NCBI RefSeq assembly: GCF_030065675.1
Contig: NZ_JASJDK010000002.1
Span: forward strand, 62,001 to 126,000
DNA from: Mastigocoleus sp. MO_188.B34
GTDB lineage: Bacteria > Cyanobacteriota > Cyanobacteriia > Cyanobacteriales > Nostocaceae
Reading direction: 5' to 3'
Length of the DNA stretch: 64,000 nucleotides
Shown: one piece after another, positions 5,236-25,305 of the stretch
How positions within the stretch are numbered: the first letter of the stretch is position 1
How the letters are laid out: every line of letters begins with the position of its first letter
Position numbers and translations under genes: made by a program
Notes under the pieces: model-generated
Seen by the model: only the letters and a program-made list of their open reading frames with translations
Database searches by the model: none
Told to the model about the DNA's origin: nothing

Positions 5236-5286
5236 CGTGTAGCCGTCTACGACTGTTCACGCATTAGCGTGCGGGCAAGCTACACG
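5236..5286 (-). repeat. IS right-end hairpin (possible omega-RNA 3' end)
   Basis: A perfect 8-bp outer stem, CGTGTAGC (5236-5243) with GCTACACG (5279-5286), encloses a smaller hairpin around CGCATTAGCGTGCG. It overlaps the last codons and stop of tnpB. In this family the right end carries the transposase-recognised hairpin. It also forms the scaffold of the TnpB guide RNA, whose guide is copied from the flanking DNA just beyond, here at coordinates below about 5236. Confidence 0.7.
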
Positions 5287-6561
5287 TTTCTGACGCTTCG
5301 TTTGAGCAACTTGCTTAAAACTTCCGCAATAAGTAGAGGTTTTCTCATCGACGTCTGTAGAGGCACGTTCCATACCCCTGTCTTGGAAAATTGCTCCACT
5401 TGGGGAAACCCCAAGACCGCATTTTCCGCTTGCATAGTTAAGCATTACCATTGCGGCAGCGACATCTCTATCACACCGATATCCACATTGCTCGCAATGG
5501 TGTTCTCGCTCAGACAACGTTTTCTTTTTCTGATGACCGCAATTAGGGCAAGTTTGAGAAGGTTTTACTTTCTTGGTTGGAATCTCAACATAAAACCCTC
5601 CAGCTTCGGTAACCTTATACTCGATCAAATCTTTTAAGTTACCAATACCAACATCGAGTAAAGACCTATTTAAACCGGACTTTTGACGTTTATTCTTACC
5701 TTTCGATTTGCGTGTCATCCCTTTAAGATTTAGCTTTTCAGTTGCTACCAGGCTATTACAGCTAACTATCTGTGTAGAAACTTTGTGTTGCCAATCTTGT
5801 CTTTGACGAGCTACTTTTGACTGTATTTTAGCTACAGCTTTATTTGCTTTTTTCCAGCGACGAGAAGCTTTAACTTTTTTCTTGAAGTTTGGAGAACGCT
5901 TACGACGACTGGTTTTAGCGATTTTGTTGATTTTATTCTGAGCAGTTTTAACAAATCTAGGATTACTTACTATATCGCCGTTGGAATCAGCGATTGCGTG
6001 GTGAGTACCAAAATCTAAACCAATCGCACCTTTATCAGTCTGATATCGGATAGGTGTGCAACCAACAGTGATTGAAGCGTACCATTTACCTTGCTTAAAA
6101 ATAATTGTGCAAGTCTTTGGTGTTCCCCAGTCACGCGCTTGACCACGCATTTTAATATTACCCAAGTTAGTAATTTTCAGGTAACCGTTCTTCCCGTTGG
6201 TACAAGCCTTCCAGCCAGATTTACAGGGATAAGTCCATCCTTTATATCTACGACTGGCTTTAAATTTTGGATATCCAGACTTAAGTTTAAAAAATCGTTT
6301 GAATGCAAAATCAACACGTTTAACAGTGTCTTGCAATGCATGACTACCAAGTTCTTTATACTCTTCCCACTGCTCTTTGAATTCTGGTAAACAATTTTGC
6401 TGATCGTAATAATCAACAGACTTACCAAATTTTTTATAAGAAGTCCTACGATGCTCAATGCAAGCGTTGTACAGGTCTTTGTGTAACCTACGCCAGTAAT
6501 GCATCTTATCATTTTGAGTTTTTGACGGGTAAAGTCTAAAAGTAATTCGTTTGGTAGCCAT
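5257..6561 (-). CDS. tnpB: TnpB, RNA-guided transposon nuclease
   Basis: A 434-residue OrfB/TnpB protein. I start it at MATKRITFRLYPS, the usual N-terminus; an ATG 7 codons upstream also exists. The RuvC-like catalytic residues look present: the aspartate in G-L-D-F-G (about 183), the glutamate in A-T-E-K-L-N (about 275) and the aspartate region C-D-R-D-V-A-A-A (about 363-370). A zinc ribbon C-P-N-C...C-E-Q-C (about 338-359) lies between the last two. TnpB proteins are RNA-guided DNA endonucleases that preserve the element at its donor site, and are ancestral to Cas12. The last seven codons are encoded by the right-end hairpin. No frameshift is seen, so the protein may be functional. Confidence 0.93.
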   Translation of the reverse strand: MATKRITFRLYPSKTQNDKMHYWRRLHKDLYNACIEHRRTSYKKFGKSVDYYDQQNCLPEFKEQWEEYKELGSHALQDTVKRVDFAFKRFFKLKSGYPKFKASRRYKGWTYPCKSGWKACTNGKNGYLKITNLGNIKMRGQARDWGTPKTCTIIFKQGKWYASITVGCTPIRYQTDKGAIGLDFGTHHAIADSNGDIVSNPRFVKTAQNKINKIAKTSRRKRSPNFKKKVKASRRWKKANKAVAKIQSKVARQRQDWQHKVSTQIVSCNSLVATEKLNLKGMTRKSKGKNKRQKSGLNRSLLDVGIGNLKDLIEYKVTEAGGFYVEIPTKKVKPSQTCPNCGHQKKKTLSEREHHCEQCGYRCDRDVAAAMVMLNYASGKCGLGVSPSGAIFQDRGMERASTDVDEKTSTYCGSFKQVAQTKRQKRVACPHANA

Positions 6562-6668
6562 AACAACATGACCTGCGGTCACGCAATACCTACGGTACGC
6601 TCACGCTAGCCGCTAACGACCTATCTGTTATATTGGCTATTATAGTCATGCGGTTACACCCTGTCAAC

Positions 6669-7073
6669 ATGAAAGCTAGAAAAGGTTCTCATAGTGTTTT
6701 TAGTGTACGGTTGCACTTTGTCTTTGTAACTCATTATCGACGCAAAGCATTAAACGCAACAATGCTTGACCGTCTTAAGGGAATGGTCAAGCAAGTGTCA
6801 GAAAAGATGGGTTGTGAATTAATAGAGTTTAATGGTGAAACAGACCATATCCATATATTGCTAGATTTCCATCCTAAAAACTCAATAGCATCTGTTGTGG
6901 GAAGTTTAAAAAGTTCTACAGCACGAATGTTAAAAAAAGAATTCCCACAAGAGGTGCAAAAGCATTACTGGGGAAAAGTATCTTTTTGGTCTAATTCTTA
7001 CTATGTAGCGTCTTGTGGTGGTGCGCCGATTGATGTTTTAAAAACATATATCCAAAGCCAAGAATCACCTTAG
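6669..7073 (+). CDS. tnpA: TnpA, Y1 (HUH) transposase of IS200/IS605
   Basis: A 134-residue IS200-type single-strand transposase from ATG 6669. TTG 6633 and ATG 6648 are in-frame alternatives that would add 12 or 7 residues. The HUH metal motif is H-I-H-I-L at about 75-79 in T-D-H-I-H-I-L-L-D. The catalytic tyrosine is expected in S-N-S-Y-Y-V-A-S-C-G near 112-121. The N-terminus S-H-S-V-F-S-V-R-L-H-F-V-F-V-T-H-Y-R-R is a clear family signature. It would cut and rejoin the hairpin ends during replication-coupled transposition. It is divergent from tnpB across a short repeat-rich spacer. Confidence 0.93.
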   Translation: MKARKGSHSVFSVRLHFVFVTHYRRKALNATMLDRLKGMVKQVSEKMGCELIEFNGETDHIHILLDFHPKNSIASVVGSLKSSTARMLKKEFPQEVQKHYWGKVSFWSNSYYVASCGGAPIDVLKTYIQSQESP

Positions 7074-24628: not shown

Positions 24629-24903
24629 TCTGAATCTCAAAAAAATGTCTTTGCTTAGATATCAGTGAAATTGATACCTAATATTAATTTTCTATTTCGA
24701 AAATATTCTTGAAAAAAGGTTTTAAATTAGCTGTATTCCGTGTTACAATTCCTCAAGCTTTGGCTGATGACAAATTTCAGGGGCATCTACATCTAACAAG
24801 CCTTTATTTAACAGTCATTTCATAAGAAATTTATAAAAATAGCTACTGAAATTTTTCCCATATTTTTTCGGACGAGCATTGTTTGCAAAGATATCTGGAA
24901 AGT

Positions 24904-25305
24904 TTACGCTCTTTGAGTGAAGCGACGGTAGAACCTACAAGAAGGTCTTGATGATATCCATATCCATCTGTATCTCCCTAGTCTGCGGGACCAAACCCTT
25001 CTACGAGTTCTATAACTTATACAGCGATACCTCGTGCATCTTCTCCACCAATATCTTCTTCCTCTTCGCCAACTCCCGCATCTGGTTCTGAACGATACTC
25101 TTCGTCTACTCCGAGCAACTAAAGTTTGTTTTTTTGGTATGGTTGGGGAGTGTTCTTCTAAAGAAATAGTGTCATTGATTTCAATCTCTTGTATGGCTGT
25201 ATCATAAAAAGGTTCTTCTGAATTTCTCAAGGCTAAGGTCGGTGAGATACCAGTCGTGAAAGCTAGCATAGCACCAGCAAAAACTACAGCTAATTTACTT
25301 TTCAT
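24904..25305 (-). CDS. Secreted arginine/tryptophan-rich small protein, acidic pro-region
   Basis: I do not recognise this 133-residue protein. It has a good signal peptide (M-K-S-K-L-A-V-V-F-A-G-A-M-L-A-F-T-T-G, cleavage near A-L-A at about 23-25). Next comes an acidic stretch (about 28-57) with 8 Asp/Glu and no Arg or Lys until a Lys-Lys. The last 69 residues hold 27 Arg, 6 Trp and 4 Cys with no Asp, Glu or Lys. AAGGGA lies 9 bases before the ATG. The shape resembles precursors in which an acidic pro-segment neutralises a cationic mature peptide. The overlapping +1 frame reads acidic but has three stops, so I prefer this frame; a frameshift cannot be excluded. Confidence 0.6.
   Translation of the reverse strand: MKSKLAVVFAGAMLAFTTGISPTLALRNSEEPFYDTAIQEIEINDTISLEEHSPTIPKKQTLVARSRRRVSFRTRCGSWRRGRRYWWRRCTRYRCISYRTRRRVWSRRLGRYRWIWISSRPSCRFYRRFTQRA

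What the first reader, a model, noticed from the sequence alone, without database searches (positions are those of the whole stretch)
24904..25305. Secreted, 69-residue Arg/Trp/Cys-rich domain behind an acidic pro-region
The C-terminal 69 residues contain 27 Arg, 6 Trp, 4 Cys and no acidic residue, following a signal peptide and an acidic segment. This is the layout of cationic antimicrobial peptide precursors, with a neutralising pro-segment and possible disulfides. The composition is counted from the sequence; antimicrobial or DNA/membrane-binding activity is only a hypothesis. Arg comes almost entirely from AGA-type codons.
Basis: partly seen in the sequence, partly recalled or inferred. 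Interest (0 to 1): 0.6.

Follow-up and report, generated by a model that had tools for sequence, protein, structure and literature searches.

The report
Secreted arginine-tryptophan-cysteine protein of filamentous cyanobacteria
A small, strongly positively charged, probably exported protein in a filamentous cyanobacterium is a real, conserved gene with a predicted compact fold and no named family; it most likely sticks to negatively charged polymers at a cell surface, and killing other microbes is possible but unproven.

Summary
The ORF is real. Its last 69 residues hold 27 Arg, 6 Trp, 4 Cys and no Asp/Glu, behind a Sec-like signal peptide and a mildly acidic linker. A syntenic orthologue in Mastigocoleus testarum keeps the frame open (84-85% identity). 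In the Arg-rich part 19 substitutions change 6 codons against 13.1 expected (P about 5e-5); the other same-strand frames show no constraint, and beyond the genus only the Arg frame is clearly conserved. Seven genes in 5 of 217 genomes share the leader and C-x(9-17)-C-x4-C-x(5-28)-C; Calothrix rhizosoleniae has three. AlphaFold2 gives residues 64-132 a four-strand beta-sheet from only four sequences. Pfam, NCBIfam, PHROGs, PADLOC and PDB sequences give no significant match. A neutralising pro-segment is not supported: linker charge -5 to -1 against +24 to +34. Best reading: an exported, disulphide-stabilised cationic beta-sheet protein that binds anionic surface polymers; antimicrobial action is a live rival. 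Probable distant relatives in two genera lie beside CHAT-nSTAND1-WD40 genes; the window gene does not.

The parts
24904..25305 (-). whole ORF, 133 aa
   Evidence: syntenic orthologue in Mastigocoleus testarum; dN/dS 0.26 whole, 0.14 Arg-rich part
25231..25305 (-). probable Sec signal peptide, residues 1-25, with a likely signal peptidase site after Ala25 (T-L-A)
   Evidence: Read by eye; Ala25 invariant in the 9 leaders aligned
25114..25230 (-). mildly acidic linker, residues 26-64, net -5, predicted disordered
   Evidence: charge; pLDDT under 50 for residues 1-60
24907..25113 (-). Arg/Trp/Cys-rich domain, residues 65-133; predicted strands 64-76, 86-106, 111-118, 122-132
25078..25080 (-). Cys76 codon
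   Evidence: Invariant in the 4 closest members; first Cys of C-x(9-17)-C-x4-C-x(5-28)-C in 7 of 7 members
25036..25038 (-). Cys90 codon
25021..25023 (-). Cys95 codon (fixed x4 spacing from Cys90 in 7 of 7 members)
24937..24939 (-). Cys123 codon

Best explanation
The gene encodes a small protein sent through the Sec pathway to the periplasm or beyond, where its last 69 residues fold into a rigid, disulphide-stabilised antiparallel beta-sheet of about +27 charge studded with Trp and Tyr. It works by binding anionic polymers of a cell envelope (sheath or capsule polysaccharide, lipopolysaccharide) through Arg-to-acid contacts reinforced by Trp, most likely on the producer's own surface or matrix. 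The acidic linker is a disordered spacer, not a neutralising pro-segment. Shown here: the reading frame is real and under purifying selection, the Cys pattern is conserved, the family is small and patchy. Predicted: the signal peptide and the beta-sheet. Inferred: disulphides, location and the ligand.
For: Composition. Frame and selection: Arg-rich part dN 0.045, dS 0.331; 6 codons changed by 19 substitutions against 13.1 at random, P about 5e-5; other two same-strand frames P 0.76 and 0.25. Cys pattern in 7 of 7 members, Trp79 and Trp86 invariant in the 4 closest. Beta-sheet with block pLDDT 83-95 from residue 71 on, repeated on the domain alone, mean 87.3. Purifying selection and a variable neighbourhood fit a structural or binding role better than a dedicated killing cluster.
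Against: No ligand, location or disulphide was tested. AlphaFold2 had only 4 sequences, the domain-alone pTM is 0.58 and its five models range from 65.2 to 87.3. The family is patchy (5 of 217 genomes), odd for a core matrix component. The same features fit an antimicrobial protein.
Confidence: 0.45

Rival explanations
1. It is a cationic antimicrobial protein: after Sec export and perhaps cleavage near the L-[IV]-A-[RQ] junction, the Arg/Trp beta-sheet disrupts membranes of competing microbes, as beta-hairpin peptides with disulphides do.
For: Charge, Trp, four conserved Cys, predicted beta-hairpins; three diverged copies in one genome; conserved linker-domain junction.
Against: Linker too weak to neutralise; no double-glycine leader; no C39 transporter family among the six nearest genes; strong purifying selection rather than diversification between the two Mastigocoleus genomes; 69 residues is long for such peptides (recalled).
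Confidence: 0.3
2. It binds nucleic acid outside the cytoplasm (extracellular DNA in the matrix, or DNA uptake).
For: Arg- and aromatic-rich beta-sheet. Foldseek's low-ranked rows include PriB and phage coat proteins that bind nucleic acid, none below E 0.1.
Against: Those structural matches are insignificant (best E 0.16; best Z 4.4, none at 5 or more). No competence gene in the neighbourhood that was read.
Confidence: 0.12
3. It belongs to a wider family of exported cationic hairpin proteins that serve as effectors of CHAT-nSTAND1-WD40 conflict systems, acting when the CHAT protease is switched on.
For: Five smaller relatives in 3 genomes lie beside four CHAT-nSTAND1-WD40 genes of 1712-1787 aa. 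A profile built without them picks exactly those five out of 416 ORFs of the three loci (E 5.7e-7, 1.4e-6, 0.0044, 0.017, 0.057).
Against: The window gene and the other six four-Cys genes show no CHAT gene in the stretches read. None of 33 further close CHAT genes has a recognisable relative at its 3' end (two of the 33 stretches end with the contig). Three of the five profile E-values are weak.
Confidence: 0.08
4. The ORF is a chance or frameshifted reading of purine-rich DNA, and the acidic +1 frame is the real one.
For: The acidic +1 frame is open for 71 codons in M. testarum and 73 in one C. rhizosoleniae copy, a by-product of GA-rich codons.
Against: That frame has two stops in the window's Arg-rich part, is not under constraint (P 0.76), and is not clearly conserved outside the genus (window versus the other five members: 20.4 bits or less, E 7e-4 at best, against 27-81 bits for the Arg frame).
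Confidence: 0.02

Closest known systems
Disulphide-stabilised beta-hairpin antimicrobial peptides of animals (tachyplesins, protegrins, arenicins: recalled) and polychaete prepropeptides with an acidic BRICHOS proregion (nicomicins, PMC6265681, abstract seen)
   Same: Signal peptide, Arg/Trp/Cys-rich cationic C-terminus, predicted beta-hairpins; in nicomicins also an acidic proregion (their mature peptide is partly helical)
   Different: Bacterial; 69-residue four-Cys domain instead of a mature peptide such as nicomicin's 33 residues; linker of 39 residues that cannot balance the charge; no BRICHOS; activity untested; no homology found
Cyanobacterial double-glycine bacteriocin precursors, NHLP and N11P (PMC3140520, passages seen)
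   Same: Small exported cyanobacterial precursors with a leader and a core
   Different: Those have a double-glycine leader cut and exported by a C39-peptidase ABC transporter, and that paper says NHLP/N11P precursors are mostly negatively charged; here a Sec-like leader without such a motif
EbfG1-4 small secreted biofilm proteins of Synechococcus elongatus (PMC4997328, abstract and outline seen)
   Same: Small secreted proteins of a cyanobacterium; a matrix role is the kind of function proposed here
   Different: EbfG use a double-glycine motif and the PteB peptidase transporter; no sequence relation was tested
CHAT-nSTAND1-WD40 conflict-type genes (Pfam PF12770, PF20703, PF00400)
   Same: Probable distant relatives of the window protein lie beside four such genes
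   Different: The window gene itself is not near one

Membership tests
Cationic antimicrobial peptide precursor with neutralising acidic pro-segment | Signal sequence followed by a cationic, Cys-containing C-terminal part | tested here: met
   (signal judged by eye)
Cationic antimicrobial peptide precursor with neutralising acidic pro-segment | Acidic pro-segment that balances the cationic part | tested here: not met
   Linker net -5 against +27; -5 to -1 against +24 to +34 in 7 of 7 members
Cationic antimicrobial peptide precursor with neutralising acidic pro-segment | Antimicrobial activity of the released peptide | not testable with these tools
   Needs peptide and assay
Cyanobacterial double-glycine bacteriocin (NHLP/N11P) | Leader with motif M(R/K)ELX3E(I/L)X2(I/V)XG(G/A) (PMC3140520, passage) | tested here: not met
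   Leaders of the aligned members lack it, by inspection; no Pfam match
Cyanobacterial double-glycine bacteriocin (NHLP/N11P) | C39-peptidase ABC transporter nearby | tested here: not met
   No transporter family among the six nearest genes, one of which has no family; the rest of the window's ORFs were only read by eye
CHAT-STAND-linked small gene | Lies beside a CHAT-nSTAND1-WD40 gene | tested here: not met
   Window neighbours are dnaK and a two-component pair, kept in M. testarum
Any curated family (Pfam, NCBIfam, PHROGs, PADLOC) | Score above a curated cut-off or a clear E-value | tested here: not met
   Window protein: 0 families. Two of five members gave weak chance-level rows (E 0.03 to 0.14) and one more a Pfam row at 0.04
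Fold of a solved structure | Significant structural match | tested here: inconclusive
   Foldseek best E 0.16, none at 0.001; VIA-align best Z 4.0 (whole) and 4.4 (domain), none at 5 or more

The most novel reading that the evidence does not exclude
A new family of exported, disulphide-stapled cationic beta-sheet proteins, one branch of which is wired to CHAT-nSTAND1-WD40 switches as their exported effector, so that a multicellular cyanobacterium would combine a caspase-like sensor with a gene-encoded cationic envelope-binding protein.
Probability: 0.08. Interest if true: 0.75.

Novelty: new variant of a known kind. Interest (0 to 1): 0.42.

Why it matters
Small, extremely basic ORFs in purine-rich DNA are easily dismissed as artefacts; here codon-level selection shows one to be a gene, with a compact predicted fold, in carbonate-boring and diatom-associated marine cyanobacteria (lifestyle of M. 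testarum from PMC4732328, abstract; of C. rhizosoleniae recalled). If it binds envelope polymers it offers a handle on how such filaments build or defend their surface; if antimicrobial, it is a folded bacterial counterpart of disulphide-stabilised cationic peptides. The CHAT-linked branch suggests a testable link to cell-death-type switches.

Tried and rejected
Frameshift or artefact reading: rejected. Single-protein search of 217 genomes gave 53 genomes at E 0.1 or less; I kept G000, G001, G031 and, as a short one-Cys relative, G186, and dropped the other 49 there as weak composition-driven matches, many with stops inside (G032 came back as a true member through). From (16 of 217 genomes at E 0.01 or less) I kept G000, G001, G031, G032, G085, G186 and G184, and dropped G026 (leader only, Lys-rich cargo), G043 and G100 (short, stop inside), G156, G157, G158, G163, G166 (a different Asn/Arg-rich secreted protein) and G187 (looks like an RlpA-type protein behind an Arg run; name recalled). 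Order-wide search: 3 of 388 genomes, the only new one a 72-aa ORF with a short Arg tail; class-wide search: 2 of 388, the new one broken by stops.

No relative was found in viral contigs (33 stretches matched a pattern, none confirmed). Genome contigs gave 3 loci from two strains; that scan is pattern-based, so the count is a lower bound. Sequence search of the PDB with the four-member profile: none at E 10 or less. The structural matches to staphylococcal G5 adhesion modules, perforin-like and phage coat folds are all at chance level; absence of a match shows nothing about the fold being new. Promoter scan: 14 sites against 12.0 expected by shuffling, uninformative.

Literature: nine searches. 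None listed a paper on this protein; 'Mastigocoleus' with 'arginine-rich' gave 0 papers. Only open-licence PMC papers are held.

CHAT link: an earlier count said that each small gene lies directly 3' of its CHAT gene; on recheck that holds for three of the four CHAT genes. In G184 one CHAT gene has a small gene on each side, and the gap from the other CHAT gene is about 1.25 kb with an opposite-strand ORF between. The 33 loci were picked by hand, leaving out duplicate contigs and several genes cut by contig ends; two stretches (L146, L153) have no 3' flank. The small-ORF filter is crude; it showed one unrelated basic secreted ORF (L169) and one non-basic one (L147) within 300 bp. In several of the 20 control loci the end of the CHAT gene was not clearly located, so that control is loose.

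Full report
What is there. The ORF is 133 codons on the minus strand, 24904..25305. The last 69 residues have 27 Arg, 6 Trp, 5 Tyr, 4 Cys and no Lys, Asp or Glu. In the rest of the window no open 69-residue stretch has more than 12 Arg. AGA makes up 17 of 28 Arg codons against 133 of 651 in the background ORFs; in the seven family members the AGA share runs from 0.30 to 0.61, so the AGA bias is not a fixed property of the family.

Is the frame real. The window's genome is 7.48 Mb in 235 contigs. There the gene lies in the same place between dnaK and the regulator/kinase pair, and the order of six flanking genes agrees. Identity is 84-85%. In the Arg-rich part dN is 0.045 and dS 0.331; over the whole gene 0.072 and 0.28. 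The 19 substitutions of that part change 6 codons and make no stop; placing the same changes at random changes 13.1 codons on average, P about 5e-5, and makes a stop in 80% of trials. The other two same-strand frames behave as random (P 0.76, 0.25).

Facts that could have gone the other way: the acidic +1 frame has two stops in the window's Arg-rich part but none in M. testarum, where it runs 71 codons, and it runs 73 codons in one Calothrix copy. Its sequence is not clearly kept outside the genus. Window against Calothrix copy 1 scores 80.9 bits in the Arg frame and 16.9 in the acidic frame. Over the five members outside the genus the Arg frame scores 26.9 to 80.9 bits, the acidic frame at most 20.4 (E 7e-4), and the third frame at most 26.6. 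The opposite-strand frames all hold two or three stops.

The family. Seven genes in 5 of the 217 genomes of the window's family (Nostocaceae is my inference) have the leader, the linker and C-x(9-17)-C-x4-C-x(5-28)-C: the window, M. testarum, three in Calothrix rhizosoleniae SC01 (G031), one in G032 and one in G085. The two close C. rhizosoleniae copies are 49 and 52% identical to the window protein in alignment. Members not used to build the profile were found at E 1.1e-8 (G085), 8.5e-7 (third Calothrix copy) and 1.1e-12 (G032, leader profile). G186 has a short relative with one Cys. Two members carry extra Arg/Trp/acid repeats before the Cys domain (G085, third Calothrix copy). Similar leaders precede unrelated cargo, such as Lys-rich proteins, so the leader alone is not proof of kinship.

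Fold. AlphaFold2 on four aligned sequences puts residues 1-60 below pLDDT 50 and gives strands 64-76, 86-106, 111-118 and 122-132, with block means of 83 to 95 from residue 71 on. The domain alone gives the same strands at mean pLDDT 87.3, pTM 0.58, with the five models between 65.2 and 87.3. With so few sequences this is a prediction to test. Foldseek and VIA-align find no significant solved structure.

The pro-segment. The linker is -5 in the window; in the seven members it is -5, -4, -2, -1, -5, -1, -1, against +27, +26, +29, +26, +27, +24, +34 for what follows. It cannot neutralise the domain. What is conserved is the junction L-[IV]-[AVS]-[RQK] before the first Arg run, which could be a cleavage site; that is inference.

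Setting and mechanism. The six nearest genes are dnaK, an OmpR-type regulator, a histidine kinase, an FAD oxidoreductase, a fructosamine kinase and a 133-aa gene without a family. In Calothrix the neighbours differ: an SLT transglycosylase and a kinase-like ORF in one case, an OrfB/TnpB-type gene in another. So there is no conserved partner gene and no peptide-antibiotic cluster. A Sec-exported, +27, Trp-rich, Cys-stapled sheet under purifying selection fits best with binding anionic envelope polymers. Membrane killing remains the main rival, and the evidence does not separate them well.

A branch beside CHAT genes. Five smaller secreted Arg-rich genes in G184, G190 and M. testarum lie beside four genes of 1712-1787 aa. 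Pfam finds CHAT above its cut-off at the N-terminus of all four. For the three scanned whole or nearly so it also finds nSTAND1 and WD40 repeats; the G190 gene was scanned only over its first 400 residues. A profile of the seven members, built without these five, hits exactly these five among 416 ORFs of the three loci (E 5.7e-7 to 0.057), and nothing among 605 ORFs from 33 other close CHAT loci or 458 from 20 more distant ones. The kinship is probable, the function of the pairing unknown, and the window gene is not part of it.

Verdict. A real, small, previously unnamed family in the libraries searched; the composition claim stands, the neutralised-precursor claim does not, and the activity is open.

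Noticed in passing
L102:6313-18968, L104:8718-15029, L107:8709-14358: Five small secreted Arg-rich genes lie beside four CHAT-nSTAND1-WD40-type genes in three genomes (G184, G190, M. testarum); in G184 one such gene has a small gene on each side.
   Followed up: partly
window 24704-24903: The 200 bases 3' of the gene are 88.0% identical to M. testarum, as high as the N-terminal coding part (88.0%), while the next 352 bases fall to 68%; a conserved 3' untranslated or small RNA element is possible.
   Followed up: no
L103:8321-8821 and L106:5564-5998: Two family members carry repeats rich in Arg, Trp and acidic residues (such as GRDWERRR) between leader and Cys domain.
   Followed up: no
L044 and L201: Proteins that look like RlpA (recalled) carry a signal peptide followed by LIARRRRRR or LIARRRKRRR, the same junction motif as this family.
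   Followed up: no
L076, L080, L094, L079: Leaders similar to this family's precede Lys-rich or other cargo in other genomes, as if one leader type were shared by several small secreted proteins.
   Followed up: partly
window 5257-6561 and 6648-7073: ORFs that look like a TnpB/OrfB protein and a divergent IS200-type transposase, an IS605-like element; judged by eye.
   Followed up: no
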